IMG/VR virus record: IMGVR_UViG_3300042455_002195
Coordinates: 1-35,200 of that record
Direction: 5' to 3' (one strand)
From: a virus
Length of the DNA stretch: 35,200 bases
Below are positions 1,737-24,669 of the stretch, in pieces. Position numbers and translations under genes: made by a program. Within the stretch, counting starts at the first letter, position 1; the number at the start of each line of letters is the position of its first letter. The notes beneath the pieces were generated by a model that saw only the letters and a program-made list of their open reading frames with translations, was not told the origin of the DNA and did not search any database.

Positions 1737-2019
1737 TGTTGTGCTTCCTATATGCTGCCAGGATCAGAGACTCCATTTCAGGATAGCTGTGATCTTGCAC
1801 ATCCTCATCAACAGTCTCCAGCTTGAGCATTTCCTCTGCAACTTGCTCAGAGCAGACGTCAGAAAGATCAGGATCATCTTCCTCCTCGTCTGGCTGATTG
1901 TTCATGAACATTGCGGCCCATTGTGCTAGAAAATTCATGATATCCTGATCATCAGAGATGCGTATAAACAACACTCGCCTGTTTTCAAAGGGGTTGGGGT
2001 CCTGTTCCTCAGGGTCCAT
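1726..2019 (-). CDS. hypothetical acidic protein
   Basis: Encodes 97 aa and is strongly acidic, with a DEEEDDPDLSD run near the middle. AAGGA lies 8 nt upstream of the ATG at 2019, a good ribosome binding site. A putative promoter with an abnormal spacer (tandem 14-bp repeat at 2054-2081) lies directly upstream and is described separately. It is the first gene of a cluster that reads down to position 1. Strong acidity is typical of small early phage proteins that bind host proteins or mimic DNA, but nothing here shows that role. Confidence 0.6.
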   Translation of the reverse strand: MDPEEQDPNPFENRRVLFIRISDDQDIMNFLAQWAAMFMNNQPDEEEDDPDLSDVCSEQVAEEMLKLETVDEDVQDHSYPEMESLILAAYRKHNNAG

Positions 2020-2053
2020 GGTAAAATTCCTTGATTGTATATGTTACTATTAC

Positions 2054-2081
2054 ATGCACTCTGTGCAATGCACTCTGTGCA
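2054..2081 (-). repeat. tandem 14-bp palindromic repeat in a promoter region
   Basis: ATGCACTCTGTGCA occurs twice head to tail, and each copy contains the inverted repeat TGCAC-tct-GTGCA. On the minus strand the pair lies between a perfect -35 box (TTGACA, plus-strand TGTCAA at 2083-2088) and a weak -10-like TAATAG (plus-strand CTATTA at 2047-2052). The present spacer is 30 bp; with one copy it would be 16 bp. It may be a slippage duplication or a double operator. Confidence 0.6.
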
Positions 2082-2091
2082 ATGTCAATTG

Positions 2092-2934
2092 TTAAACCTT
2101 GTTCCAGTGTGCCTTCACGCAGCTACGGGCACGCTCACGGGTCATGCCCAGGTCCAGGATGGCCAGTTCAATCACCTTGTTGATATCATGGCCCAGATCC
2201 TTGTGTGCACGGATCAGACGGCGCACCTTCTCGGCCCAGGTGAGCTCGCCGTCCTTGGTGATGCGCACTTCCTTGCGGGCAGGAATCACAGGAGCCACCA
2301 CCACCTTGCGCTCAACAGCAGCAGGAGCAGGAGCCACAGGAGGCACAGGCATCTTGTTGCCAGGAATCACCATCTCGCCGATCTTGCGCATCTGCGGCAC
2401 CTCAGGCAAGGGCTGACCCTGGGGAGCCCAGGCGCAAAAACGATTTACACGCCCACGAGTCTTCTTGAGCACACGGCCCTGACCAGCCTGGATCTTGGTG
2501 TGGATCAGCTTGCTCACCGTGACCTCAGTGCCACAGGTGGCGCGGTAGGTGATGCCACCGCCCTTGGGGGTGGTTTCATAATCATGGCGGGTGTTGCCAT
2601 TGCCACCCAGCGCAGTGCAGATGCGGCGCCAGCCTGCATCATGCTTGCGGCCCAGATCAGGACGGGCATAGGTAACCAGGTGTGCCACTTCATGCGGCAC
2701 AGTGTTGTCCATCATGTCCTGGAAATGCTTGCCCTGGATGATTTCACGGTTGAACCTCAGCTTGAAGTCCTGGGCTTTGCGGGTGAACATGCAGAAGCGG
2801 CAAGATGCCCAACCAGCAGTGCGGCCCGTGAGATTGAACAAAATTTGCGGCTCAATTTTCACGCCATACAGGGCTTCAGCCTTGGCCAGCACCTGGGCGG
2901 TCTTGCTGCGGATAGCATCGAAACGGTCTTGCAT
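2092..2934 (-). CDS. SprT-like zinc metalloprotease
   Basis: Encodes 280 aa from the ATG at 2934; a GTG sits directly before it. Residues about 81-85 read HEVAH, the HExxH zinc-binding and catalytic signature, and a third ligand is likely H98 in the following KHDAGW motif. This spacing is that of the SprT/Spartan family. SprT proteins are known or suspected to cleave DNA-bound proteins, which would suit removal of DNA-protein crosslinks during phage replication; that role is inference. A Pro/Ala-rich linker with Val-rich stretches follows the protease domain, then a C-terminal helical region. A clean promoter lies upstream at 2961-2988. Confidence 0.8.
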   Translation of the reverse strand: MQDRFDAIRSKTAQVLAKAEALYGVKIEPQILFNLTGRTAGWASCRFCMFTRKAQDFKLRFNREIIQGKHFQDMMDNTVPHEVAHLVTYARPDLGRKHDAGWRRICTALGGNGNTRHDYETTPKGGGITYRATCGTEVTVSKLIHTKIQAGQGRVLKKTRGRVNRFCAWAPQGQPLPEVPQMRKIGEMVIPGNKMPVPPVAPAPAAVERKVVVAPVIPARKEVRITKDGELTWAEKVRRLIRAHKDLGHDINKVIELAILDLGMTRERARSCVKAHWNKV

Positions 2935-2960
2935 CACTGGTTTCCGTTGCTTACCTGATC

Positions 2961-2988
2961 AATATAGCACAGGCTGACCAAATGTCAA
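2961..2988 (-). promoter_or_regulatory. sigma70-type promoter of the SprT-like gene
   Basis: Read on the minus strand, TTGACA (2988-2983) and TATATT (2966-2961) are separated by 16 bp. The -35 box is preceded by GG, as in the other early promoters of this window. It points at the SprT-like gene starting at 2934. Confidence 0.7.
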
Positions 2989-2996
2989 CCACTTTC

Positions 2997-3248
2997 TTAC
3001 CCCAAAATCACCCACCAGTGGCTGCCCTGGGCAACGGTCTGGCCCCAGCACCCAGCATATTTCTCACCCTGGTCCAGGACCAGGTAGCTGACGCCAGCAG
3101 CCTCGAGAGCCTGCGTCACGTCGGCAGTCAACTTGGTGCTGTCCATGCCATGGCGGTAGAAGAAGCCACGGCGAACCACGATCTGGCCCTGCTTGTTGCG
3201 GCCGATTGCGACATCCATCCCCACCAGTGCATCTCGAATCTCTTTCAT
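2997..3248 (-). CDS. hypothetical early protein
   Basis: Encodes 83 aa from the ATG at 3248, preceded at 6 nt by a perfect AAGGAG. The protein is compact, has no membrane segment and ends with the aromatic stretch GSHWWVILG. I do not recognise a family. The gene has its own consensus promoter and the repeated leader (CATAGAGCAAGGAGCACA) shared with the genes starting at 3789 and 4073, so it is probably expressed early and strongly. Monocistronic expression is suggested by a gene-free gap on its upstream side. Confidence 0.65.
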   Translation of the reverse strand: MKEIRDALVGMDVAIGRNKQGQIVVRRGFFYRHGMDSTKLTADVTQALEAAGVSYLVLDQGEKYAGCWGQTVAQGSHWWVILG

Positions 3249-3273
3249 GGTGTGCTCCTTGCTCTATGTGGGC

Positions 3274-3302
3274 ATTATAGCACGTTGGCTCTTGAGTGTC
3301 AA
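3274..3302 (-). promoter_or_regulatory. early sigma70-type promoter with T-tract
   Basis: On the minus strand TTGACA (3302-3297) and TATAAT (3279-3274) are both perfect, with a 17-bp spacer. ATTTTTTGG lies directly upstream of the -35 box, as in the promoters at 3819-3846 and 4020-4048. The predicted leader carries CATAGAGCAAGGAGCACA before the start at 3248. Confidence 0.85.
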
Positions 3303-3477
3303 CCAAAAAATCGCCCAATGGTGAAAAAAATCTCAGCCTGTGAGCAGTATCCGCACACACATTTCACCAACGAGCCCCACGAGAATGGGCTGGTTCTTGC
3401 TAACCTGTTGATATCTTTTGAAAGCTAACCCATTGATCTCATTATATCTGCAGGACCCGCCCTTGTTGTGAGGATCC

Positions 3478-3789
3478 TCAGCCCTGGGCCTGGAACATCA
3501 GCACCGCAGCGCCCATTTCCCGCCACATCCGCTCTTGCCTCTGCAGATTCATCTTGCGGGTCTTGCACAGATCACGGATCTGTTCAAACACCTGCACCAT
3601 GTGTGCATGGCTCTTGAAACAATCGCGCAGATATTCATCTGCAGCCTCATTGGGCACATACAGCATGTCATCAGCCACAAAGGCCAGGATATGATCGCCC
3701 TTGCTCTGCACCACAGTGTTATACACACGGGGACGATCTTCCTTGCGCATGGCAGCAGCACGGTCAGCAGCTTGATCCCAGGTCAACAT
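3478..3789 (-). CDS. hypothetical early protein
   Basis: Encodes 103 aa beginning MLTWDQAADRAAAM. The ATG at 3789 is preferred because AAGGAG lies 8 nt upstream and because the open frame further upstream runs through the promoter itself. The protein is helical and basic toward its C-terminus (KTRKMNLQRQERMWREM). No family is recognised. It carries the same promoter/leader cassette as the gene at 2997-3248, and the 174-bp gap between the two genes contains no other gene that I can see. Confidence 0.6.
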   Translation of the reverse strand: MLTWDQAADRAAAMRKEDRPRVYNTVVQSKGDHILAFVADDMLYVPNEAADEYLRDCFKSHAHMVQVFEQIRDLCKTRKMNLQRQERMWREMGAAVLMFQAQG

Positions 3790-3818
3790 GTGTTGTGCTC
3801 CTTGCTCTCTATGACCCC

Positions 3819-3846
3819 ATAATAGCATGATCACAGCCTGAGTCAA
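3819..3846 (-). promoter_or_regulatory. early sigma70-type promoter with T-tract
   Basis: Minus-strand TTGACT (3846-3841) and TATTAT (3824-3819) are separated by 16 bp and preceded by GATTTTTTGG. The leader contains CATAGAGAGCAAGGAGCACA, nearly identical to those before the genes starting at 3248 and 4073. Confidence 0.75.
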
Positions 3847-3913
3847 CCAAAAAATCACCTAATAATCTTGCGCAAATGAGCAAAAATGCACAATTTTTAT
3901 ATCTAGAAAACGC

Positions 3914-3941
3914 TTGACCCAGAGGCGGTAGATGCTATAAT
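3914..3941 (+). promoter_or_regulatory. sigma70-type promoter, upstream of the tandem promoter pair
   Basis: TTGACC (3914-3919) and a perfect TATAAT (3936-3941) have a 16-bp spacer. Transcription would start near 3948 and meet a terminator-like hairpin at 3989-4017 before the next gene, so a short RNA of about 70 nt is the simplest product. Confidence 0.7.
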
Positions 3942-3947
3942 CAGCCC

Positions 3948-4017
3948 ATACAACGGCAGATAAGGGGCCAAACAGCAACCAGGGCACGAAAAAAGGTGGA
4001 CTAGACACACCTTTTTT
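3948..4017 (+). ncRNA. candidate short RNA ending at a terminator hairpin
   Basis: The interval between the predicted start of the promoter at 3914-3941 and the hairpin at 3989-4017 is about 70 nt and contains no plausible reading frame. It ends in a U-tract. It could be a small RNA, or a leader whose termination is regulated so that readthrough reaches the ATPase gene. Only the promoter and terminator signals support it. Confidence 0.4.
3989..4017 (+). terminator. intrinsic terminator-like hairpin between two promoters
   Basis: AAAAAAGGTG pairs with CACCTTTTTT across a 9-nt loop, ending in six U residues. The T-tract doubles as the T6GG element directly upstream of the next -35 box (TAGACA at 4020). 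Confidence 0.65.
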
Positions 4018-4019
4018 GG

Positions 4020-4048
4020 TAGACAACCCGCCCAAACGCTGCTATATT
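4020..4048 (+). promoter_or_regulatory. promoter of the AAA-like ATPase gene
   Basis: TAGACA (4020-4025) and TATATT (4043-4048) have a 17-bp spacer and are preceded by TTTTTTGG. The leader CATAGAGAGCAAGGAACACA matches the leaders of the minus-strand genes starting at 3248 and 3789. Confidence 0.65.
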
Positions 4049-4072
4049 GGCCACATAGAGAGCAAGGAACAC

Positions 4073-5119
4073 ATGCACATGGAACTCAATAACGCTTTTG
4101 TTCGCGTCCACACTGGCGCTACCAAGGCTGGCGTTGAAATTCGGGACACTGTGTTCCGCCTGCTGGGACACCTGCAGCGCAACGAGATCGGCATGTTCAT
4201 CACCGTGGACGGCAAGGACGTCAACATTGATGGCATCCGCAACGGCAAGAACCGCATCTACCTCACCAAGCCTACTGACTATGAGATGCTGGACGCCAAG
4301 ACTGGCGCCGCTGCTGTCAAGGCTGATGAGGACGAGGATCAGGGCCGCACTGACGATGAGATTGCTGCGGACCTCAAGGAAACTTTTGACATCCTCAGCG
4401 AGATGACCAGCGCCGTGGCCAACGGTGTGGTGAAAGGCCTGGTTGTCAGCGGACCCGCTGGCGTGGGCAAAAGCCACACTGTGGAATCCACTCTGGATGA
4501 CACCCTGGGTGTGCAGGCCAAGCTCATGAGCCGCCTGCCTCAGTATGATGTGTTCAAGGGCAATTTGAGTGCTATTACGCTGTATATGACCCTCTACAAG
4601 TATAGCGAGGAAGGCAGTGTGCTGGTGCTGGATGATTGTGATGGTGTGCTGTATGATGAAGATGCCTTGAATATTTTGAAGGCCGCTTTGGACACCAAGA
4701 AGGTGCGTCGCATTCATTGGGGCACCAACAGCCACATTCTGGAAAAGGAAGGTGTTCCCAGCTCTTTTGAATTCAAGGGCGGCATCATCTTCCTCACCAA
4801 TATTGACTTTGAGAACTGCAAGAGCGCCCGCATTATCAACCACCTGCAGGCCATCATGAGCCGTTGCCACTATATCCGGATCAGCATGAACACGTTGCGT
4901 GAGCGTGTGATCCACATGCGCAATGTGGTGGAAACCACCAACATGCTGGCTGACTATAACTTCACCAAGAACGAGGTTGATGAGGTTATGAATTTCCTGA
5001 TGGCCAATTTGAACAAGCTCAGGGAAGTGACCCTGCGCGCCGTGCTCAAGGCATGTGACCTCAAGAAGGCCATGCACACTACCTGGGCCAAGACTGCACT
5101 CCGCAGCCTCTGCAAGTAA
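4073..5119 (+). CDS. AAA-like P-loop ATPase
   Basis: Encodes 348 aa. The first ATG at 4073 has AAGGA only 4 nt upstream, so the second ATG at 4079 (10 nt) may be the real start. Residues about 124-132 read GPAGVGKSH, a Walker A motif. VLVLDDCDGVL near residue 185 is a Walker B motif, and IIFLTNID near residue 240 is placed like sensor 1. The C-terminal third is helical, as in AAA lid domains. Before the P-loop is a phage-specific domain and an acidic linker (DEDEDQGRTDDE). Proteins of this kind occur in T4-like phages, but their substrate is unknown to me. It has its own promoter and is followed by a long hairpin. Confidence 0.75.
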   Translation: MHMELNNAFVRVHTGATKAGVEIRDTVFRLLGHLQRNEIGMFITVDGKDVNIDGIRNGKNRIYLTKPTDYEMLDAKTGAAAVKADEDEDQGRTDDEIAADLKETFDILSEMTSAVANGVVKGLVVSGPAGVGKSHTVESTLDDTLGVQAKLMSRLPQYDVFKGNLSAITLYMTLYKYSEEGSVLVLDDCDGVLYDEDALNILKAALDTKKVRRIHWGTNSHILEKEGVPSSFEFKGGIIFLTNIDFENCKSARIINHLQAIMSRCHYIRISMNTLRERVIHMRNVVETTNMLADYNFTKNEVDEVMNFLMANLNKLREVTLRAVLKACDLKKAMHTTWAKTALRSLCK

Positions 5120-5123
5120 TCAA

Positions 5124-5162
5124 GATATAGTGAGCTAGGATTTGGTCCTAGCTCACTATATC
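5124..5162. terminator. 17-bp perfect hairpin between convergent genes
   Basis: Positions 5124-5140 and 5146-5162 are perfectly complementary around a 5-nt loop (TTTGG). The hairpin lies just after the ATPase stop (5119) and reaches the stop of the opposite-strand endonuclease (5161-5163). There is no U-tract on either side, so it is either an atypical bidirectional terminator or an mRNA 3'-end stabiliser. Confidence 0.6.
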
Positions 5163-5937
5163 ACACTATATGGGACTTGCGTTTGGTATATTTGCGTTTG
5201 GGTAATTTGGGTGTGCAATTGATACCATGGTATCTTGTATGTGTGGTTTTATTTTGTGTCTGGTATCCACATGCAGAGCATGTGAGCCAGAGTCTCGTAG
5301 GATCATTTAATGTCCGTTTCATGGACTCAATCCTATTGTTCACATGATCTGACGATTGAGGTCTTCCTCTGAGTTTAGCTGCATGTTTCTCTATAGATTC
5401 TGGTGATTTAGGTAGACCGGTTTTTATTTGACGCAAGTGTTCAATTGTTTCCGGTTTATGCCGTTTGCCTGTTTGACGTATACTGGCATTTTTCCTATAT
5501 TCATCGGATTTGGGAGGCATCTTTCTGCCTCTCTTTTTTAAACCTGCTGCCTTGTAGTTGGCCATAGCCTTGTCCGACCTTGTATATTTCTGTCCTAAAT
5601 TGTGGAAGACCTTTGCATTATCACCTTGGCGTCTATACCACTTATTAAGGCAGTTATATTCCCCCAAATGGGCGGATATTATATCTTGTTCAGCCCAATA
5701 AGCCTCATCAGGATCTAGATATTCTGCAATTATGACAGCATCAAAATTATCCGGAGTGTATTTTTGTAGCAGTTGTTTGATAATTTTTGAACTTGTGAAA
5801 TATTTGACCCATAGGTCTTGGATGGGCCGTCTACCCAGTAATATATGTGCTGCTCTAAATCCAAAGTAATATTCCCCTGTGGGTAGACAAGTAATCTTGT
5901 AGACATATGCAGGAATAGGTTGTAGATTGTTAGTCAT
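5161..5937 (-). CDS. GIY-YIG homing endonuclease with NUMOD3-like repeats
   Basis: Encodes 258 aa from the ATG at 5937, which has GGAG 8 nt upstream; longer upstream starts have no such site. Residues 11-16 (YVYKIT) and 22-27 (EYYFGF) form the two halves of a GIY-YIG-type core, followed by an Arg-rich helix and WAEQ, where the metal-binding Glu is expected. A basic middle region contains NUMOD3-like DNA-binding segments (GKRHKPETIEHLRQIKTG and LPKSPESIEKH). The C-terminus has a C-x2-C...H...H-x4-C pattern that could bind zinc. The family makes site-specific double-strand breaks that spread the gene. It is opposite in strand to its neighbours, as expected for a free-standing mobile gene like the T4 seg genes. 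Confidence 0.85.
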   Translation of the reverse strand: MTNNLQPIPAYVYKITCLPTGEYYFGFRAAHILLGRRPIQDLWVKYFTSSKIIKQLLQKYTPDNFDAVIIAEYLDPDEAYWAEQDIISAHLGEYNCLNKWYRRQGDNAKVFHNLGQKYTRSDKAMANYKAAGLKKRGRKMPPKSDEYRKNASIRQTGKRHKPETIEHLRQIKTGLPKSPESIEKHAAKLRGRPQSSDHVNNRIESMKRTLNDPTRLWLTCSACGYQTQNKTTHTRYHGINCTPKLPKRKYTKRKSHIV

Positions 5938-6005
5938 GCTGAATGCTCCCAATAAGCGTTTAGAGTGGGTGGGTGTTGGTAGCACCGCGATCCACACTTT
6001 ATTTA

Positions 6006-6033
6006 TTGACATCATACAGTCTCATGTTACTAT
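6006..6033 (+). promoter_or_regulatory. sigma70-type promoter of the 6061-7227 operon
   Basis: TTGACA (6006-6011), a 16-bp spacer and TACTAT (6028-6033). The predicted start near 6040 lies downstream of the in-frame ATG at 6034, which supports the ATG at 6061 as the first start codon of the operon. Confidence 0.7.
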
Positions 6034-6571: not shown

Positions 6572-6751
6572 ATGACCAGTTTTTTGATTGTAAGTGTGAT
6601 GGTTGCAGGTATTACGCAGGGCCGGCCCATGGAATTGCAGAGTGTCACCAGCAACTGCTACACTGAGCAACTGGTGGTGGATGGCATCAACAAGAGCAAT
6701 GTTGCCAACAACGTGAATGTGCAATACATCACCAAATGTGTGAGCAAGTAA
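6572..6751 (+). CDS. small protein with an N-terminal hydrophobic segment, possibly exported
   Basis: Encodes 59 aa with a perfect AAGGAG 6 nt before the ATG at 6572. Residues 1-14 (MTSFLIVSVMVAGI) are hydrophobic, and the remainder is polar with exactly two cysteines (SNCYTEQ and ITKCVSK). That fits a small exported, disulfide-bonded product or a membrane-anchored peptide. The hydrophobic segment lacks a positively charged start, so a canonical signal peptide is uncertain. No family is recognised. It lies in the same operon as the kinase gene at 6757. Confidence 0.6.
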   Translation: MTSFLIVSVMVAGITQGRPMELQSVTSNCYTEQLVVDGINKSNVANNVNVQYITKCVSK

Positions 6752-6756
6752 ATCCC

Positions 6757-7227
6757 ATGCCCACATTTACCATGCTCATTGGTGTGCCAGGAAGTGGCAA
6801 AAGTACTTGGCTGGCTAAACAGTCTATTGACTGGACTAATACGGTAATCGTTAGTACAGACAATATTATTGAACGTAGGGCTCAGGAGCAAGGTAGGGCC
6901 TATTCAGAGGTCTTCCACAAGGAGATTAAGAGTGCTACATCAGAAATGAATCAAATTTTGCGTGATGCCTTGGCCAAAGGGTTGAACATCATAAATGATC
7001 AGACCAATACTACGGTGAAATCCCGCAAGAACAAGCTGGCTGCGTTCCCTGCAAATTATCGCCGGGTGGCTGTGTTCTTTCGCACACCAGATGATGATGA
7101 ACATCAGCGCAGGCTGCTCAGCCGTGCTGGCAAGACCATTCCTGTGGCTGTGCTCAACAGCATGAAAGCCCAGCTACAAGAGCCTGAGGCAGAGGAAGGC
7201 TGGGACGAATTTGTATATGTAGGTTGA
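6757..7227 (+). CDS. polynucleotide-kinase-like P-loop kinase
   Basis: Encodes 156 aa. Residues 9-17 (GVPGSGKST) are a Walker A motif. VSTDN about 20 residues later and INDQTN further on correspond to the substrate and base positions of the T4 Pnk kinase domain (ISDTN in T4). SRAGKTIPVAVLNSM near the C-terminus matches the lid/helix region of T4 Pnk (RGTKAVPIDVLRSM). The T4 enzyme phosphorylates 5'-OH ends of RNA and DNA to allow repair by RNA ligase. Here the C-terminal phosphatase domain is absent and no ligase gene is visible. The nucleic-acid substrate is therefore an inference from similarity. Confidence 0.75.
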   Translation: MPTFTMLIGVPGSGKSTWLAKQSIDWTNTVIVSTDNIIERRAQEQGRAYSEVFHKEIKSATSEMNQILRDALAKGLNIINDQTNTTVKSRKNKLAAFPANYRRVAVFFRTPDDDEHQRRLLSRAGKTIPVAVLNSMKAQLQEPEAEEGWDEFVYVG

Positions 7228-8899: not shown

Positions 8900-11470
8900 A
8901 TGAGTGATGTAGCAAAAATTGTGATTGAGGACGAAGTGAATGTTCATATCCAGAACATTGATTTGTCCACCAAAAAGGCTCTTGTAAAAGAGGTGGAATT
9001 TTTTCTGCCTCAGGCACGATATTCAGCGGCTTACAAATTAGGTAGATGGAATGGTTGTACAAGTTTTTGTACACTGGGAGGCAAAACTTATCTGAATGTC
9101 TTGGATAAATTGCTGCCTGTGCTACAAGACCGAGGCTATGAATTTGAGATTGAGGATCAGAGAGCTTTTCACAAATTTGATTTTCAACTCATTGATGAAA
9201 ATTATCTGAGTGATCTCACATGGCCCTTTGGACATAGATTTGCCAATCAGAATATTGTGATGCGAGACTACCAGGTGGAAGCCATCAATGTATGTTTGCA
9301 GAATTTACAAGGGGTAAATGTGTTGCCCACCAGTGCTGGTAAATGTCAGCCATTATATGCTAAAGTTAAAACACCAGATGGTTGGACTACTATGGGAGAA
9401 CTAAAGGTGGGGGATCAAGTGATGACCCCAAAAGGTAACTGTGTTCAAGTTCAAGCGGTGTTTGATCCAGGTCACAAGGATGTGTATGAACTTACGTTCA
9501 AAGATGGTAGAAAAGTGAGGTCTTGCGAAGACCATGTTTGGCCCATCTTTCATCATGACTGGCAGAACAAATTCAAACTGTTAAGTTTGAAGGAAGTAAT
9601 TGCATTGAAAAACAAAACTAGGCGATGCATTGGTGTACCACTAGCAACCATGGATCAAGATATTCAACCTAGATCTCTGCCATTAGATCCGTATCTGTTG
9701 GGAGCTATGTTGGGCGACGGATCATTTAGACATAACATTGGATTTACATCACAAGATCAATTTATTCTGGATAAGGTTTCCAGCCTACTCCATTCAGATT
9801 ATGTGTTAAAACATTGTGACAAGTATGACTGGAGCGTGGTGTTTAAAGATCATGCAACTCATATGACGTATAGATCCGAATATACAAAAACTCAAAAGAG
9901 GGACACACATGGCAAGATCATTAAAGATCAACAAATTCCTTCATACCATCTCTATAAATCAATTATTGATAAACTAGGTCTTATGGGCACATATAGCCAC
10001 ACAAAATTCATTCCTGAAATCTATCTGAATGCATCCTACACGCAGAGGATAGAATTGATCAAGGGTCTCATGGACACGGACGGATATGTGAGTAAAAGAG
10101 GGGATTATTCATATACCACCGTTAGCCCACAATTGGCAGCCGACTTTGTGTATCTGATCAGAAGTGTGGGGGGAATAGCCTATACCAAGATATTAAAAAA
10201 CAGATCTTATGTGAATAAATCAGGAGACAGAATTCCTGCTAAAGATGCATACACGGTTAGGTTATACCATCCTACACCCGAACTATTAGTGTCACTACCT
10301 CGCAAGATAGAACGACTTGGCAATAGCAAAGCAAGGACTATCCCAGTCCTCCACATTACCCATATCAAAAAGGTATCACATGAACCTGTCAAATGCATAA
10401 TGATTGATGATCCTGATCACTTGTATCTGACAGATGACTTTGTGATGACACATAATACGATAGTGACTGCAACACTCAGCAAAATTGTGGAACCCCATGG
10501 CAGAAGCATTGTGATTGTGCCCAACAAAAACCTAGTACAACAAACTGAAGAAGATTACAGGAACATTGGCTTGGATGTGGGAGTGCTGTATGGCGACAGA
10601 AAAGAGTATGATTGTCAACACACCATTTGCACATGGCAAAGTTTGAATGTGTTGGACAAAAAGCACAAGGACTGCCTGGACAATCAGCAAATGGATGTGT
10701 TCCTCAAGGATTTGGTTTGTATCATATGTGACGAGTGCCACGCGATAAAGGATCAGAATATCCTACACAAGCTGATGACCACTGTGTTCAAGAACATACC
10801 CATCAGATGGGGTCTTACTGGCACCATTCCAGAAGAAGAGTTCAAGCAGATGGGCCTGTTCACAGCCATTGGTCCACAAATTGGCGCACTCACGGCCAAA
10901 GAACTGCAAGACAAGGGTGTGCTGGCACAATGCCATGTGAGTGTGCTGCAAACACAAGAAAATCTACAATATGGCAATTATCAGGAAGAACTCAAATACT
11001 TGCTGACTGATGACAAGAGACTTGCATGGATGGCTGGTGTGATTGAGGAGATCAGCCAAAGTGGCAATACCCTTGTGTTGGTGGACAGGATTGAAACAGG
11101 ACAAAAGCTCTACAATCAAATCAGCAACAGTGTGTTTATCAGTGGAGAAATGAAAAGCAACGATCGCCGAGAGCACTACAAGGAAATCAATTTCAGTGAC
11201 AACAAGATCATGATTGCCACTTATGGCACCACCAGTACTGGCATAAATATATCACGAATATTTAATCTTGTGTTGGTTGAAGCAGGCAAAAGTTTTGTGC
11301 GAACTATCCAAAGTATAGGACGTGGCCTGCGTATGGCTGATGACAAAAATAGTGTGGAGATCTATGACCTATGCAGCCGAATGAAATTCTCAAACAATCA
11401 CTCCAACAAACGAAAGGCGTTTTACAGCAAGGCACAATACCCTTATGTGATCAAAAAGATCACGTATTAA
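8900..11470 (+). CDS. uvsW: UvsW recombination helicase precursor with intein
   Basis: An 856-aa precursor. The extein N-terminal domain (residues 1-148) matches the UvsW layout and ends in PTSAGK, the first part of the Walker A motif. A 371-residue intein (149-519) interrupts it, and T520 completes GKT. Downstream are DECH (611-614), a motif III-like GLTGT, motif V TYGTTSTGIN and motif VI QSIGRGLRM near residue 805, all of SF2 helicases. The mature protein would be 485 aa, close to T4 UvsW (about 500 aa). UvsW unwinds and anneals branched DNA during recombination-dependent replication. The helicase cannot bind ATP until the intein leaves. AAAGG lies just upstream of the ATG. Confidence 0.9.
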   Translation: MSDVAKIVIEDEVNVHIQNIDLSTKKALVKEVEFFLPQARYSAAYKLGRWNGCTSFCTLGGKTYLNVLDKLLPVLQDRGYEFEIEDQRAFHKFDFQLIDENYLSDLTWPFGHRFANQNIVMRDYQVEAINVCLQNLQGVNVLPTSAGKCQPLYAKVKTPDGWTTMGELKVGDQVMTPKGNCVQVQAVFDPGHKDVYELTFKDGRKVRSCEDHVWPIFHHDWQNKFKLLSLKEVIALKNKTRRCIGVPLATMDQDIQPRSLPLDPYLLGAMLGDGSFRHNIGFTSQDQFILDKVSSLLHSDYVLKHCDKYDWSVVFKDHATHMTYRSEYTKTQKRDTHGKIIKDQQIPSYHLYKSIIDKLGLMGTYSHTKFIPEIYLNASYTQRIELIKGLMDTDGYVSKRGDYSYTTVSPQLAADFVYLIRSVGGIAYTKILKNRSYVNKSGDRIPAKDAYTVRLYHPTPELLVSLPRKIERLGNSKARTIPVLHITHIKKVSHEPVKCIMIDDPDHLYLTDDFVMTHNTIVTATLSKIVEPHGRSIVIVPNKNLVQQTEEDYRNIGLDVGVLYGDRKEYDCQHTICTWQSLNVLDKKHKDCLDNQQMDVFLKDLVCIICDECHAIKDQNILHKLMTTVFKNIPIRWGLTGTIPEEEFKQMGLFTAIGPQIGALTAKELQDKGVLAQCHVSVLQTQENLQYGNYQEELKYLLTDDKRLAWMAGVIEEISQSGNTLVLVDRIETGQKLYNQISNSVFISGEMKSNDRREHYKEINFSDNKIMIATYGTTSTGINISRIFNLVLVEAGKSFVRTIQSIGRGLRMADDKNSVEIYDLCSRMKFSNNHSNKRKAFYSKAQYPYVIKKITY
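9344..10456 (+). mobile_element. intein with LAGLIDADG endonuclease in UvsW
   Basis: 371 residues, starting at Cys149 (CQPLYAKVKTPDGW, splicing block A) and ending in MTHN519 before Thr520. The block-B-like segment is RSCEDHVWP. Two LAGLIDADG-type motifs, LLGAMLGDGS near residue 264 and LIKGLMDTDGY near 385, mark an endonuclease domain with Asp/Asp active sites. The last block reads MIDDPDHLYLTDDFVMTHN. All residues needed for class 1 splicing (Cys1, the His of block B, terminal His-Asn, +1 Thr) are visible, so it is probably active in splicing, and probably in homing. Confidence 0.92.
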
Positions 11471-13278
11471 ATCTTGTAGAGCAGGCCTTGTGTGTGTTCA
11501 AACGAGCAGACAAAGTAGTGCAATATCTCAAAGACAATGTCCTATGGGGTTGGATTCAAGGTCAAATTGACTCTACCCTACTATTAACAAAAAAAGATAT
11601 TGAAATCCTCACGGCATTTGTGGATGGCGCTGCACCACAATGTGATCAAGGCAACTGGATCACCTACGCAAACTATGCTGTGGGATATAGGTTTTGTGGA
11701 CCTGCTGCAAAATGTGAGTGTGCTAGACAGAGTGTGAGCAAAAAGGTCAGCGTGATCAAAACCAATGCCACACAAGAACAAAAAGATCAAAGTCTAGCCA
11801 AACGCCAAGCAACCAATATTCAACGATACGGCATAGCCAATCCGTTGCAGAATGTGGAAAAGATCAAGCAATCCAATCTCAAGAATTTGGGAGTCACCAA
11901 TCCCAACAAACTCACAAGAGTTAGAAACAAGATTCGATCCACATGTGAAAGAAAATATGGAGGCCCTGCTCCTGCTTGTGACTCAAGCATACAGGATAAG
12001 ATCACGCAAACCAACTTGTCCAGATACGGAACAGCAAGCACCTTTGAGAATCCTCTAATTCGCGCAAAACAACTGTCTACTCTTGTGCAAAATTATGGTG
12101 TAGAATATCCCATCCAAAATCCTGAGATTGCGCACAAGATCAAACAAACCAATTTGAGCAGATATGGATACGAAAATGCAAGCCAAAATCCTGAGGTCAT
12201 CCAAAAAATAAAAGCAAGCCAACAACACACATTTTTGGACAATTTGATCACACGACTAGAACCACACAAAATAATACCATTGGGACAATTTGATCAAGTG
12301 AGCAATCATAGTCAATGGATGTGTGAGGTGTGTGAAAACGATTTTGTATCCACAGCAATAAATGGGAGGGTGCCCAGATGTCCCTGCTGTTATCCCAATC
12401 ATATCAGTCATCCGCAAAAAGAAATTGCTGACTATATTGCAAGCCTAGTAGGCAGAGACAACGTGCATCATAATGATCGCAAGATTTTGCTAGATACTGA
12501 TGACAAAAGGCGCAGCAAGGAAATAGACATCACAATACAAGGATATAATCTTGCTATTGAATTTTGTGGATTGCGATGGCATACCGAATTTTTTGGGAAA
12601 AAACACAAGAGGTATCATGCTCAAAAAACACAAGGATGCCAGGAAAAAAACATACAATTGTTGACAATCTGGGGCGATGAATGGGAATCCAATAGAAGTT
12701 TGTTGAAAAGCATGATAGCTGTGAGGTTGGGGTTGATCACCAACAAATATCATGCTCGCAAACTGAAACTGGCTACTGTGACCAGTCAAATGGCTAGACT
12801 ATTTTTTGATTCCAATCACATTCAAGGATATGTGAATAGTTCACAACATGCGGCCCTCATGGATGGTGATCAAATCATCATGTGCATGGCATTCATCAAG
12901 AGTCGTTTTGACAAAAATTATCAATGGGAATTGAGTAGAATGGCCACAATCAAGCATTCAATCGTTGTGGGGGGAGCAAGTAGATTGTTCTCCTATGCAA
13001 AACAACAATTGAACATGCACAGCCTGATATCATATTGTGATTTGAGATATGGCACAGGCAATGTGTATCAACAGTTGGGAATGACCAAAATGGGCCAACC
13101 CACACTGGGCTATGAATATGTGGACATCAACAATCCCAGTTATCGAATCAATCGCATCAAACTACAAAAACATAAATTGGGTGATATTGGCAATCAATCT
13201 GCCCTGGAATATCTCCAATCACAAGGCATTGACAGATTGTGGGATTGTGGGCACCAAAAATTTGTTTGGACAGCATGA
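11371..13278 (+). CDS. EDxHD/Vsr-like homing endonuclease downstream of uvsW
   Basis: Encodes 635 aa if it starts at the ATG 11371, which lies 100 nt inside the end of uvsW with GGAG 11 nt upstream. The N-terminal half has repeated NUMOD-like units of the type NLSRYGTASTFENP. A C-x2-C...C-x2-C knuckle follows (CEVCEN and CPCCYP). The nuclease core has E384-x-D386 and IEFCGLRWH (E397, H404), a Vsr-like fold signature. The C-terminal domain (SYCDLRYGTG...WDCG) is shared with the endonuclease at 22652-24148. Such enzymes cut specific sites and spread their own gene. No exon or intein features flank it, so it is free-standing. Confidence 0.8.
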   Translation: MQPNEILKQSLQQTKGVLQQGTIPLCDQKDHVLNLVEQALCVFKRADKVVQYLKDNVLWGWIQGQIDSTLLLTKKDIEILTAFVDGAAPQCDQGNWITYANYAVGYRFCGPAAKCECARQSVSKKVSVIKTNATQEQKDQSLAKRQATNIQRYGIANPLQNVEKIKQSNLKNLGVTNPNKLTRVRNKIRSTCERKYGGPAPACDSSIQDKITQTNLSRYGTASTFENPLIRAKQLSTLVQNYGVEYPIQNPEIAHKIKQTNLSRYGYENASQNPEVIQKIKASQQHTFLDNLITRLEPHKIIPLGQFDQVSNHSQWMCEVCENDFVSTAINGRVPRCPCCYPNHISHPQKEIADYIASLVGRDNVHHNDRKILLDTDDKRRSKEIDITIQGYNLAIEFCGLRWHTEFFGKKHKRYHAQKTQGCQEKNIQLLTIWGDEWESNRSLLKSMIAVRLGLITNKYHARKLKLATVTSQMARLFFDSNHIQGYVNSSQHAALMDGDQIIMCMAFIKSRFDKNYQWELSRMATIKHSIVVGGASRLFSYAKQQLNMHSLISYCDLRYGTGNVYQQLGMTKMGQPTLGYEYVDINNPSYRINRIKLQKHKLGDIGNQSALEYLQSQGIDRLWDCGHQKFVWTA

Positions 13279-13447: not shown

Positions 13448-14206
13448 ATGAAAATCTATGATTGTTTTACCTTTTTTAATGAATTGGATCTACTTGAGAT
13501 CAGGTTGCAAGAACTCTATGATGTTGTGGATTATTTTGTGATTGTGGAAAGTGATACCAGCTTCAGAGGTAACCCCAAACCTTTTTATCTACAAGACAAC
13601 TGGCAAAGATTTAATAAATTTCATGACAAGATTAGGTATATTCAAGTTGCAAATATATCCCACACCAATATGATGTATGCGCAATATGCCCAAATCAACC
13701 AACGTTCTCTAGAAGATGCATGGACCAGAGAACGTTGGCAAAGAGATTGTATTTCACGTGCATTACATGATGCAACCCTTGATGATTGGGTGATCATAAG
13801 TGATTGTGATGAAATTCTCAGATCCACAAGTGTTGCAAAATTACGGGACATTACAGACTGTCATAGAGTAATCTTGAAAATGCCTCTCTTCTACTATAAG
13901 GTTAATTATATTAATAAAGCACAACCCACATGGGCTCACACAATTGCATGTAAAGGAGCTCATTTTACCAGTGCTCAACAGGAAAGAGAATTTACCGCTT
14001 ATTGGCTGGCACCTCCACCTGCCAATACAATGTTCCTGGACCACGCAGGATGGCATTTCAGTTATCTGGGTGATAATCAACAGATTATACATAAAATACA
14101 AAATTTTGCACATTCAGAGCACGATAATGCGGATCTACTAGCCAAAGTAGATATTAACAAATTGATCAGTTCTGGTGTAGACAAATATGGTGTAGGTCAA
14201 TATTAG
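13448..14206 (+). CDS. GT17-family glycosyltransferase, C-terminus cut by TAG
   Basis: Encodes 252 aa beginning MKIYDCFTFFNELDLLEIRL, the typical start of glycosyltransferase family 17, with FVIVESDTSFRGNPKP and the WVIISDCDEIL segment, whose DCDE is the expected nucleotide-sugar/metal site. Known members transfer GlcNAc; in phages the acceptor is unknown. The TAG at 14204-14206 looks premature. The same frame continues as NISITDYWPSSIYNNLRTYS and on to a TGA at 14315-14317, and this resembles the usual GT17 tail. GGGA precedes the ATG by 9 nt. It may be truncated but active, or a decaying gene. Confidence 0.75.
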   Translation: MKIYDCFTFFNELDLLEIRLQELYDVVDYFVIVESDTSFRGNPKPFYLQDNWQRFNKFHDKIRYIQVANISHTNMMYAQYAQINQRSLEDAWTRERWQRDCISRALHDATLDDWVIISDCDEILRSTSVAKLRDITDCHRVILKMPLFYYKVNYINKAQPTWAHTIACKGAHFTSAQQEREFTAYWLAPPPANTMFLDHAGWHFSYLGDNQQIIHKIQNFAHSEHDNADLLAKVDINKLISSGVDKYGVGQY

Positions 14207-21408: not shown

Positions 21409-22698
21409 ATGTCAGCAAATACAAGAGATTACAATGAAGATGTACAGAAATTGTTGGTTAGCGTTCTCTTGAGTGATGAAGAGATCTTTGCACGTTGCCA
21501 AAACATTTTGCAAGCCAAATATTTTGTAAACAAATTGCGACCAGTTGTGAGATTCATGCTGGATTTTGCCAATCAATATCGCGCAGTACCCAAACATGAG
21601 CAAATCCGGGCGCAATTTGGCATTGATCTGGACAAAATGGATAGAATGAATCCAGCACTGCAACAAGCATTCCTGGATCAGATTGAAGAATTTTGCAAGA
21701 ACAGAGCTCTGGCAGATGCTGTGCTCAGTGCAGGTGATCTGATTGCCAAGGGCAACTATGGTGAAGTTGAGAAGCGTGTGAGAGAAGCCATATTGGTGGG
21801 ACTCAACAGCAACATTGGCATCAGGTATTTTGATGATCCCAGAGCACGACTCATGAAGATCAAAAACAGCAATGGACAGGTGAGCAGCAGTTGGAAATCA
21901 GTTGATCAAAAGCTGTATGGTGGATTGAACAGAAAAGAACTCACCATTTGGTGTGCCGGCAGTGGTGGTGGCAAAAGTGTCACCATGCAGAACATGGGTG
22001 TGAACATGGCCCGTGCTGGATTGAATGTGATTTACATCAGTCTAGAGCTCAGTGAGGAAATGATCAGCATGCGACTGGACAGCATGGTGAGCGGGGTGGC
22101 CACACATGAAATCTTCAAGAGACTGGATGATGTGGAAATCAAGGTGCTGCAAGCCGGCAAAAAGAGTGCTGACTTGCATGTGAGGCAGATGCCACAAGGC
22201 ACAACCACAAATGACTTGCGAGCATATCTCAAGAATTATGAGATTGAAACAGGTCACAGGTGTGATGTGCTGATTGTGGATTATTTGGACCTCATGTTTC
22301 CCAACAATAAGAAAATTGATGTGAGCAATCTCTACATCAAGGATAAATATATAACGGAGGAGTTGAGGGGGTTAGCCATGGAAACAAACATGGTGGCCAT
22401 CACAGCTTCACAGTTGGGAAGGTGTTTAACATTGGATACACAGGTGCAATTGGCAAACGGACAACAGATTACTATTAGCAACCTCAAGGAGGGTGATCTT
22501 GTTCAAGGATCAAATGGAGTAGTTAAAGTAGTAAATGTTTTCCCCAAGGCCAAACAATTGGTATTCAAGATAAAGACAAAAAGTGGCAAAGAAATCAAAG
22601 CTACAGCACAGCATAAATTTCCAACTGCAGAAGGAACAAGGAGCTTGGAACATGGACTTACAGTTGGACAAAAACTCTATATCAAAAATTCTGAATGA
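21409..22698 (+). CDS. 41: gp41 replicative helicase N-terminal part fused to split-intein N half
   Basis: 429 aa. Residues 1-338 are the DnaB-family helicase with Walker A AGSGGGKSV near 183-191 and Walker B VLIVDYLDLM near 286-295. The part ends in ITASQLGR, the conserved SQLxR motif. Cys339 starts a 91-residue IntN (CLTLDTQVQLANG; block B TAQHKF). The frame then stops, so this is a separate gene from the C-terminal part at 24148-24669. The halves must trans-splice to give a 471-aa helicase, close to T4 gp41 (475 aa). AAGGA lies 6 nt before the ATG. T4 gp41 unwinds the fork and recruits primase. Confidence 0.93.
   Translation: MSANTRDYNEDVQKLLVSVLLSDEEIFARCQNILQAKYFVNKLRPVVRFMLDFANQYRAVPKHEQIRAQFGIDLDKMDRMNPALQQAFLDQIEEFCKNRALADAVLSAGDLIAKGNYGEVEKRVREAILVGLNSNIGIRYFDDPRARLMKIKNSNGQVSSSWKSVDQKLYGGLNRKELTIWCAGSGGGKSVTMQNMGVNMARAGLNVIYISLELSEEMISMRLDSMVSGVATHEIFKRLDDVEIKVLQAGKKSADLHVRQMPQGTTTNDLRAYLKNYEIETGHRCDVLIVDYLDLMFPNNKKIDVSNLYIKDKYITEELRGLAMETNMVAITASQLGRCLTLDTQVQLANGQQITISNLKEGDLVQGSNGVVKVVNVFPKAKQLVFKIKTKSGKEIKATAQHKFPTAEGTRSLEHGLTVGQKLYIKNSE
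22423..22695 (+). mobile_element. split intein, N-terminal half
   Basis: 91 residues starting at the Cys after SQLGR. Size and motifs (CLTLDTQVQ, then VVNVFPKAKQLVFKI) match the IntN of gp41-type split inteins, whose known IntN is about 88 aa. Block B carries T-x-x-H (TAQH). Confidence 0.92.
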
Positions 22699-24148
22699 AT
22701 TATGGACAAGAAACCAAGGCAAGGGGGCTCAATCCACTCTTGTGAGTAGGTTTAAATCAGTAGTGACTGCATTGGACGCTAGGTATCCACAAATAGATAA
22801 TTATGGACAGAAAGCCTATCTGTGGGTTAATGATCTAGACTCTGTACCATTATGTTATTGTGGCCAACCAACCATTTGGAAAAGTTACACAAGAGGATAT
22901 GGTGAATATTGCGGTATCAAATGCATGAGCAAGTGTCCTGTGACTCTTCAAAAAAAATCAGCCACTGTGCAAAATAGGTACGGGGTGAGTCACTTTTCCA
23001 AAACAGAGTTGTATAAAACCAAATTTAAAAATACCTGTATGGACAGGTATGGTGTGATAAATCCGGGGCAAATTGTTGATCTAAAAATCAGAAGATCCAA
23101 AACAAAAAGCCAAACATATCTCTTGAATTTAATCCATATCAACGAACACCATTACACTCCATTATTTGAATATGCTGAATTCCAAGGTGTGCATGAATCT
23201 AGCATGTGGAGATGTGTGAAATGCAAAACGGATTTTGAAATGTGCAATTTGATACAAGGTATCAGATGTTCCTCATGTTACCCTAAAACAAGATTGGTGG
23301 GAGAAAGCAAACAAGAAATAGAAATTGCAGACTGGCTCAAATCTTTGAATATATCTGTTGAACGCAAAAATCGCACCCTATTGAATGGAAAAGAGTTAGA
23401 TCTATTGATTCCTGATCATAATTTAGCTATTGAGGTATGTGGGTCATATTGGCACAGTGACAGATTTGTGGATAAATTGTATCATCAGCAAAAAACAGTG
23501 CAATGTGAACTACAAAACATACAATTAATAACCCTGTTTGATTTTGATTTGAAAAACCAAAATATAGTGAAAGACATGATCCTACACAAACTGGGTCTGA
23601 GCACCAAGAAAAAATTTATGCCCAGACAGGGAACTATACAACAAATCAATAGCAAACAGGCCAAAGAATTTAACAATTTATATCATCTGAGAGCGCATGC
23701 TGCTGCAAGCCATCATTTTGGTTTTTTTGTAAATGACGAATTGATTGCAGTGTCTAGCTGGAGCAAGAGCAGGTTTGACAAAAATAGTCATGCACTGGAG
23801 CTTGTGAGGCTGTGTTCCAAGAATCCAGTGTCAGGATTGCTGGGAAAAATGACACACTATGCCTCAAAGGTACTGAATGCAAAAACAATACACAGCTATG
23901 TTGATTTGAGGTATGGATCTGGTAGCAGTTATCAATCCGCAGGATATAATTTAATACGCACAACCAAACCTGGTTATTGGTATGTGGACGGAAATGCAAC
24001 ATGTTACCACAGATCTTCCTTTGCCAAAAGTAACCTCACACATTTTCCAAATTATGATCAGAACAAAACAGAATTTGAAATCATGAATGAACTTGGGTAT
24101 CATAGAATATGGGATTGTGGTAACAAATTATATGAATGGAAATTGTAA
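22652..24148 (+). CDS. EDxHD/Vsr-like homing endonuclease inside the fractured gp41 gene
   Basis: Encodes 498 aa. The start at 22652 is supported by a perfect AAGGAG 8 nt upstream, even though it lies within the IntN coding sequence. An open frame begins upstream at 22583 but lacks this. Order: C-x-C/C-x3-C zinc-like knuckles near the N-terminus, RYG-type NUMOD-like repeats (VQNRYGVSHFSKTELY), a C-x2-C...C-x2-C finger (CVKCKT, CSSCYP), then the nuclease core (KELDLLIPDHNLAIEVCGSY, WH). The C-terminal domain (DLRYGSGSSYQSAGY...WDCGN) is shared with the endonuclease at 11371-13278. Its stop overlaps the IntC start as TAATG. Confidence 0.9.
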   Translation: MDLQLDKNSISKILNELWTRNQGKGAQSTLVSRFKSVVTALDARYPQIDNYGQKAYLWVNDLDSVPLCYCGQPTIWKSYTRGYGEYCGIKCMSKCPVTLQKKSATVQNRYGVSHFSKTELYKTKFKNTCMDRYGVINPGQIVDLKIRRSKTKSQTYLLNLIHINEHHYTPLFEYAEFQGVHESSMWRCVKCKTDFEMCNLIQGIRCSSCYPKTRLVGESKQEIEIADWLKSLNISVERKNRTLLNGKELDLLIPDHNLAIEVCGSYWHSDRFVDKLYHQQKTVQCELQNIQLITLFDFDLKNQNIVKDMILHKLGLSTKKKFMPRQGTIQQINSKQAKEFNNLYHLRAHAAASHHFGFFVNDELIAVSSWSKSRFDKNSHALELVRLCSKNPVSGLLGKMTHYASKVLNAKTIHSYVDLRYGSGSSYQSAGYNLIRTTKPGYWYVDGNATCYHRSSFAKSNLTHFPNYDQNKTEFEIMNELGYHRIWDCGNKLYEWKL

Positions 24149-24267
24149 TGGATTTTTTTGAAGAAGATGAAATCATAGAGATTGAAGTAGTGGGTTGGGA
24201 AGATACTGTGGATATTGAAGTATCTGATAACCATTTGTTTGTAGCCAACCAAATTCTCACTCATAAT
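24148..24267 (+). mobile_element. split intein, C-terminal half
   Basis: 40 residues ending in His-Asn before Ser, the signature of the splicing C-terminus. Size and sequence (VDIEV.DNHLFVANQILTHN) closely follow known gp41-type IntC peptides, for example ILTHN at the end of gp41-8. Confidence 0.92.
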
Positions 24268-24669
24268 AGTTCAGTTAATGAACTAGAACATGATCACAGT
24301 CACATCGCCGGTGGTATCAGCAAAATTCAAACAGCAGACAATGTGATCAGTATTCTTGCCACACCTGCCATGAGAGAGCGCGGACAATATCAATTTCAGT
24401 TTCTCAAAACACGCAGCAGCAGTGGTGTGGGCAGCAAGATCATCATGGGCTATGATCAGGAAACCCTGCGCATATTTGATTTGGAAGAAGGCGATGCAGA
24501 TGTGCCAGTTAAAACCGCAAGTGACATGTTGGCAGATTTGCGTAGAAAGAACAATCAGGCTGCAACAGGCACTTCAACAACAGAGAACAAAAAACCGGAT
24601 CAACCATCAGTTAATCCGGTGAAAAGTGTAGTCAGTTTGAAAGAACTTACAAGTTTGATCAAGCGTTAG
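24148..24669 (+). CDS. 41: split-intein C half fused to gp41 helicase C-terminal part
   Basis: 173 aa from the ATG at 24148, translation-coupled by TAATG to the endonuclease stop. Residues 1-40 are IntC (MDFFEEDEIIEIEVVGWEDT, then VDIEVSDNHLFVANQILTHN). Residue 41 is the +1 Ser, and SSVNELEHDHSHIAGGISKI continues the helicase after the SQLGR break. The remaining 133 residues include the C-terminal RecA-like elements. A Pro/Asn-rich region precedes a short C-terminal LKELTSLIKR tail. No clear ribosome binding site other than the coupling. Confidence 0.92.
   Translation: MDFFEEDEIIEIEVVGWEDTVDIEVSDNHLFVANQILTHNSSVNELEHDHSHIAGGISKIQTADNVISILATPAMRERGQYQFQFLKTRSSSGVGSKIIMGYDQETLRIFDLEEGDADVPVKTASDMLADLRRKNNQAATGTSTTENKKPDQPSVNPVKSVVSLKELTSLIKR

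What the first reader, a model, noticed from the sequence alone, without database searches (positions are those of the whole stretch)
21409..24669. Complete fractured gp41 gene: split intein with an endonuclease gene between the halves
The helicase reads through SQLGR, then a 91-residue IntN and a stop. A free endonuclease gene follows with its own AAGGAG, starting inside the IntN coding region. A separate gene then encodes a 40-residue IntC and the rest of the helicase, starting at +1 Ser. The two exteins add up to 471 aa. Fractured genes of this type were known from marine metagenome fragments of gp41 and related genes; here all three parts are intact in a genomic neighbourhood with the primase just upstream. 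Trans-splicing must occur for replication to work. The overlap of the endonuclease start with IntN couples mobility to the intein.
Basis: partly seen in the sequence, partly recalled or inferred. Interest (0 to 1): 0.9.

Follow-up and report, generated by a model that had tools for sequence, protein, structure and literature searches.

The report
Phage helicase gene split by intein
A large phage's replication-helicase gene is broken in two by a protein-splicing element (a split intein) with a DNA-cutting gene lodged between the halves; this arrangement has been known since 2009, but relatives collected here show the same site empty, unbroken, broken, and broken with the cutting gene lost, so the origin of split inteins can be tested.

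Summary
The intein is closest to gp41-1 (6qaz, E 1.4e-25). The nuclease domain matches 3r3p (to my knowledge I-Bth0305I, EDxHD), with a C-terminal Mom-like fold. This is a 'fractured gene' as described by Dassa et al. 2009: a new member of a known kind. Complete cases also exist in isolates (MIJ3 polB, published; Shigella phage ESh36 gp41, unannotated). IMG/VR holds about 60 distinct broken gp41-type genes, plus empty sites, 9 contiguous mini-inteins, two endonuclease families in the gap, and about 10 split inteins whose endonuclease is gone, several with only its 3' stub left. A contiguous and a fractured allele, 96-97% identical in the intein, mark the breakpoint. In all 13 loci with the window-type endonuclease its start lies inside IntN; 9 of 13 carry an overprinted Shine-Dalgarno plus ATG, 0 of 52 others. 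Trans-splicing is very likely but untested; a second helicase outside this 35-kb fragment cannot be excluded.

The parts
21409..22422 (+). N-extein (338 aa) of the gp41/DnaB-like replicative helicase, ending TASQLGR
   Evidence: Pfam DnaB_C E 2e-19; phrog_19 E 4e-56; aligns without gap at the junction to intein-free MIJ3, Atu_ph07, Phosso
22423..22698 (+). IntN, 91 aa (C1; block-B-like TAQH) and stop
   Evidence: With IntC matches gp41-1 6qaz over its whole length, E 1.4e-25; dN/dS about 0.11 against L009
22638..22643 (+). Shine-Dalgarno AAGGAG of the endonuclease, overprinted on IntN codons
   Evidence: SD + ATG in the +1 frame at this place in 9/13 HEN-A loci and 0/52 others, Fisher P 2e-8, not corrected for relatedness
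22652..24148 (+). Free-standing endonuclease gene (HEN-A), 498 aa: DUF7487-like N part, zinc-ribbon-like CxxC pair, EDxHD/Vsr-like nuclease, C-terminal Mom-like GNAT domain
   Evidence: phrog_3339 homing endonuclease E 2e-97; profile vs PDB 3r3p E 4.9e-7; AF2 pLDDT 85; Foldseek best hit Mu Mom 8bv8 E 1.4e-7
24148..24267 (+). IntC, 40 aa, ending LTHN
   Evidence: start overlaps the endonuclease stop (TAATG)
24268..24669 (+). C-extein, 133 aa, beginning with the +1 Ser nucleophile
   Evidence: phrog_19 continues, E 1.4e-7; 88% identical in L009
20386..21405 (+). Primase-like gene directly upstream (context)
   Evidence: phrog_47 DNA primase E 5e-26; same order in MIJ3 and Phosso

Best explanation
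This is a fractured gp41-type helicase gene. Two cistrons make the helicase halves, each fused to half of a gp41-1-family split intein; the halves associate and trans-splice, joining Arg338 to the +1 Ser to give the 471-aa helicase (inferred). The gene between them encodes a free-standing EDxHD/Vsr-type homing endonuclease that cuts intein-free gp41 alleles of coinfecting phages near this conserved codon block; repair copies IntN, endonuclease, IntC and the +1 Ser codon into the recipient (inferred). The endonuclease is translated from a Shine-Dalgarno and ATG written inside the IntN codons, and the IntC start overlaps its end, so the three cistrons are translationally linked (sequence shown, coupling inferred). 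Comparison shows that this gp41 position exists as empty, contiguous mini-intein, split + endonuclease, and split with endonuclease deleted (states shown; direction of change inferred).
For: Anatomy exact. Intein: gp41-1 full-length match; C1, TAQH, HN and +1 Ser present. Purifying selection against L009: dN/dS IntN 0.11, IntC 0.15, exteins 0.05-0.09, endonuclease pN 0.235 at pS 0.84. Site vacant in close relatives L031-L033 (78-82% identical N-exteins) and in MIJ3, Atu_ph07, Phosso; the window's 7-member extein clade mixes empty, HEN-A and HEN-B alleles, as expected of mobility. +1 residue is Ser/Cys in 41/42 intein-bearing but 105/181 empty alleles, P 6e-8 uncorrected. Endonuclease homologous to 3r3p; nuclease residues conserved across 12 family members. 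Double overlap and intact ORFs in 13/13 HEN-A loci; overprinted SD 9/13 vs 0/52. Before/after pair L457 (contiguous, 387 nt) vs L458/L454 (fractured, 1675 nt), intein halves 96-97% identical DNA, breakpoint at intein nt 267-270. HEN-B stubs in HEN-less split loci. Found only in viral contigs; none in 84,980 species genomes at this sensitivity.
Against: No splicing or cleavage was measured. The endonuclease target is not known. The window is a fragment, so a second helicase gene cannot be excluded. The root of the intein tree is unknown, so gain and loss of the endonuclease cannot be ordered. The closest before/after pair carries the other endonuclease family (HEN-B), not the window's. Shuffle and Fisher tests ignore relatedness.
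Confidence: 0.88

Rival explanations
1. The split intein is a decayed remnant and the phage uses another replicative helicase encoded elsewhere; the halves no longer splice.
For: The window is a 35-kb fragment, so the rest of the genome is unseen.
Against: All parts keep dN/dS far below 1 against L009 at near-saturated synonymous sites; catalytic residues are intact; the gene sits beside the primase-like gene as in intact relatives.
Confidence: 0.05
2. The endonuclease is not a homing enzyme of this site but a resident restriction-modification-like weapon (Mom-like domain protects phage DNA, nuclease attacks competitors) that merely sits in the intein.
For: C-terminal domain has the Mom fold; PMC7824862 describes Mom-REase fusions in jumbo phages as conflict systems.
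Against: The gene is placed inside inteins at the same place in 13 loci with an overprinted start, and also directly after an intact gp41 in L151; PHROGs names the family homing endonuclease; Mom Ser124, mutated in the inactive form solved as 8bv8, aligns with Gly398 here.
Confidence: 0.12
3. Assembly or frameshift artefact that breaks a contiguous intein with an internal endonuclease domain.
For: Contiguous inteins occur at this site.
Against: Identical 11.5-kb stretch in a second contig; same two breaks in diverged L009 and further loci; the endonuclease is in another frame with its own SD.
Confidence: 0.01

Closest known systems
Fractured genes (Dassa et al. 2009, NAR 37:2560; text not held, known to me from the abstract)
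   Same: Conserved replication enzyme broken by a split intein with a free-standing, often Vsr-related endonuclease gene between the halves; gp41 among the hosts
   Different: Those were metagenomic loci; here the same gp41 position is followed through empty, contiguous, split and endonuclease-deleted alleles
gp41-1 and gp41-8 split inteins
   Same: Best solved relative is gp41-1 (6qaz), split at the same place; insertion SQLxR|S is, from memory, the gp41-8 insertion site (SQLNR|SAVEE)
   Different: The window intein lies on a long branch with L009 only
I-Bth0305I (EDxHD) and Hef-like homing endonucleases of T4-related phages
   Same: Nuclease domain matches 3r3p; about 400 phage records hold relatives, several annotated Hef-like or nuclease/acetyltransferase
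   Different: Carries a Mom-like GNAT domain and sits inside a split intein
Phage Mu Mom
   Same: C-terminal domain is Mom-like: Foldseek 1.4e-7, hhalign E 4e-6
   Different: Fused to a nuclease; the Ser124 position is Gly (Gly or Ser in the family)
MIJ3 polB split intein with endonuclease (PMC6892783)
   Same: Fractured gene in an isolated jumbo phage whose helicase is 43% identical to this one
   Different: PolB rather than gp41; MIJ3 gp41 is intact
Shigella phage ESh36 (ON528746) gp41
   Same: Complete fractured gp41 with overlapping endonuclease-like ORF
   Different: Other insertion point (DIAE|SAG), unrelated endonuclease-like ORF, unannotated in the record

Membership tests
Fractured gene | Host enzyme gene split in two ORFs at one point | tested here: met
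   Halves 338 + 133 aa align end to end with intact relatives
Fractured gene | Complementary IntN and IntC at the break | tested here: met
   gp41-1 match across both halves, E 1.4e-25
Fractured gene | Free-standing endonuclease gene between the halves | tested here: met
   498-aa ORF, phrog_3339 E 2e-97, 3r3p homologue
Fractured gene | Trans-splicing restores the enzyme | not testable with these tools
   Needs co-expression
gp41-type split intein | Catalytic C1, TxxH, HN and +1 S/T/C | tested here: met
   C1, TAQH, HN, S+1 in the sequence
EDxHD homing endonuclease (I-Bth0305I) | Vsr-like nuclease core with conserved acidic/His residues | tested here: met
   3r3p E 4.9e-7; E248, D250, E261, H268 invariant in 12 members
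EDxHD homing endonuclease (I-Bth0305I) | Cuts the intein-free allele at the insertion site | not testable with these tools
   Needs cleavage assay
Mom DNA-modification family | Mom/GNAT fold | tested here: met
   Foldseek 8bv8 E 1.4e-7; Pfam Mom above cut-off in L117 (30.7 vs 27.1), just below it in the window (26.8)
Mom DNA-modification family | Ser124, whose Ala mutant is the inactive form solved as 8bv8 | tested here: not met
   hhalign places Gly398 there; Gly or Ser in the family. Filed as Mom-like fold, not as a Mom modifier

The most novel reading that the evidence does not exclude
The window-type endonuclease is a combined cut-and-mark homing enzyme: its Mom-like domain modifies adenines so that the donor genome is protected while the nuclease attacks unmarked gp41 alleles, making the fractured intein a small selfish restriction-modification-like homing unit.
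Probability: 0.12. Interest if true: 0.82.

Novelty: new member of a known kind. Interest (0 to 1): 0.55.

Why it matters
By itself the locus is one more fractured gp41. With the relatives found here, the equivalent gp41 position is seen vacant, filled by a contiguous 129-143-aa mini-intein, broken by either of two endonuclease families, and broken with the endonuclease deleted and its 3' end kept ahead of IntC. That makes the long-standing question of how split inteins arise, and whether breaks can heal, testable with closely related alleles. It also links the Mom-nuclease fusions of large phages to homing, and offers dozens of new natural split inteins.

Tried and rejected
Continuous inteins in RAS14/XacN1 suspected from the long tblastn match: rejected, the proteins are intact and intein-free. 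Co-conversion tract around the insertion between window and L009: synonymous divergence dips to 0.24 in the last 18 codons before the junction but not after it; too few codons, not claimed. IntC- and mini-intein-led IMG/VR scans mostly returned empty alleles. Bacterial genomes: none. phmmer of the endonuclease alone against PDB: none; the profile was needed. Dassa 2009 is not in the library; no paper found with SQLNR/SAVEE, so the gp41-8 site identity rests on memory. The direction of split vs contiguous change was left open because the tree is unrooted and short.

Full report
Observation. Joined exteins make 471 aa and match intact jumbo-phage helicases without a gap at the junction. The intein is closest to gp41-1 over its full length. 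The window is a 35.2-kb virus fragment with a single gp41 match. A second IMG/VR contig is identical over 11.5 kb, and the diverged L009 (extN 93%, IntN 74%, endonuclease 66%, IntC 79%, extC 88%) has the same layout. Synonymous sites are near saturation between the two while non-synonymous change stays low in every part, the endonuclease included: the whole unit is maintained.

The site. Among IMG/VR relatives of the helicase most alleles are empty at this codon. IntN-led scans gave, after removing duplicates, 72 gp41-type loci carrying an IntN (two of them, L191 and L467, at another point of the helicase; one contig is cut): 13 split with the window-type endonuclease (HEN-A), 37 split with a second family (HEN-B; Vsr/MTES_1575-like by weak Pfam hits; a few of these assignments come from single-linkage clustering), 9 contiguous mini-inteins of 387-429 nt, 11 split without a full endonuclease, 1 other (ESh36). 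In extein trees the window's seven-member clade holds three empty, two HEN-A and two HEN-B alleles, so occupants change quickly between close relatives. The residue after the site is Ser or Cys in 41 of 42 filled alleles (the other is Thr) against 105 of 181 empty ones, as expected if the +1 nucleophile arrives with the element.

How the break forms. The contiguous allele L457 and fractured alleles L454/L458 are 96-97% identical in both intein halves; they differ by an endonuclease cassette of about 1.3 kb at intein nt 267-270. L231 (contiguous ...VVIN-MYQLFKIDDEI) is the unbroken counterpart of L038 (...SMIN / MYQLFEIEDEI). Loci without the endonuclease (L203, L204, L232, L248, L253, L254 and others) keep a 3' stub of HEN-B ahead of IntC, which fits the fact that IntC translation starts inside that stub. 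Contiguous alleles are scattered among split ones in the intein tree (6 changes). Break, endonuclease loss and possibly healing have therefore all happened here; their order is not resolved.

The endonuclease. HEN-A homologues share a DUF7487-like N part, a zinc-ribbon-like CxxC pair, an EDxHD/Vsr-type nuclease (3r3p, E 4.9e-7) and a C-terminal domain whose best solved fold match is phage Mu Mom. Large-phage Mom-nuclease fusions were described as restriction-modification-like weapons (PMC7824862); here the same architecture sits in an intein as a homing-type gene. The residue equivalent to Mom Ser124 is Gly in the window, so modification activity is open. In all 13 HEN-A loci the gene is intact (489-500 aa), starts inside IntN at +220 to +229 and ends at or across the IntC start; nine carry SD plus ATG overprinted on IntN codons, none of 52 other alleles do. 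L151 has the same endonuclease 2 nt after an intact gp41, a plausible free-standing precursor.

Known or new. The arrangement is that of Dassa et al. 2009 (from memory; not held). Complete examples in isolates are MIJ3 polB and, unannotated, gp41 of Shigella phage ESh36, the only record with that insert among 542 phage records that share its gp41 N region. So: new member of a known kind, with an unusually complete comparative series around it.

Noticed in passing
window 8900-11470: UvsW/ResIII-like helicase gene with a contiguous LAGLIDADG intein inserted in Walker A (GK|T), starting near 9344.
   Followed up: partly
window 11371-13278: Second endonuclease of the same phrog_3339 family (29-32% identical to the fractured-gene one) directly behind the intein-bearing helicase, its open frame overlapping that gene's 3' end.
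   Followed up: partly
window 5161-6015, minus strand: GIY-YIG SegE-like homing endonuclease gene; with the others the window holds at least four mobile nuclease modules.
   Followed up: no
L191 (ON528746.1) 1882-4862: Shigella phage ESh36, a T4-like isolate (record flagged UNVERIFIED), carries an unannotated fractured gp41 at DIAE|SAG; an endonuclease-like ORF overlaps both halves; IntC ends TKN. Among 542 records with the gp41 N region only ESh36 has the insert.
   Followed up: partly
L151 2470-5380: Intact gp41 followed after 2 nt by a free-standing HEN-A gene.
   Followed up: partly
L253 vs L255: Identical intein halves, but HEN-B has an internal deletion in L253; either a fresh decay event or a defective assembly.
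   Followed up: no
L197 5024-; L425 5027-: HEN-B frame shortened in L197, IntN frame broken after 43 aa in L425: decay or sequencing errors.
   Followed up: no
window 13448-14206: Glycosyltransferase family 17 gene (Pfam E 2.5e-29) in a phage.
   Followed up: no
window 2095-2937, minus strand; 6736-7227: SprT-like metalloprotease and a polynucleotide-kinase-like AAA_33 gene.
   Followed up: no
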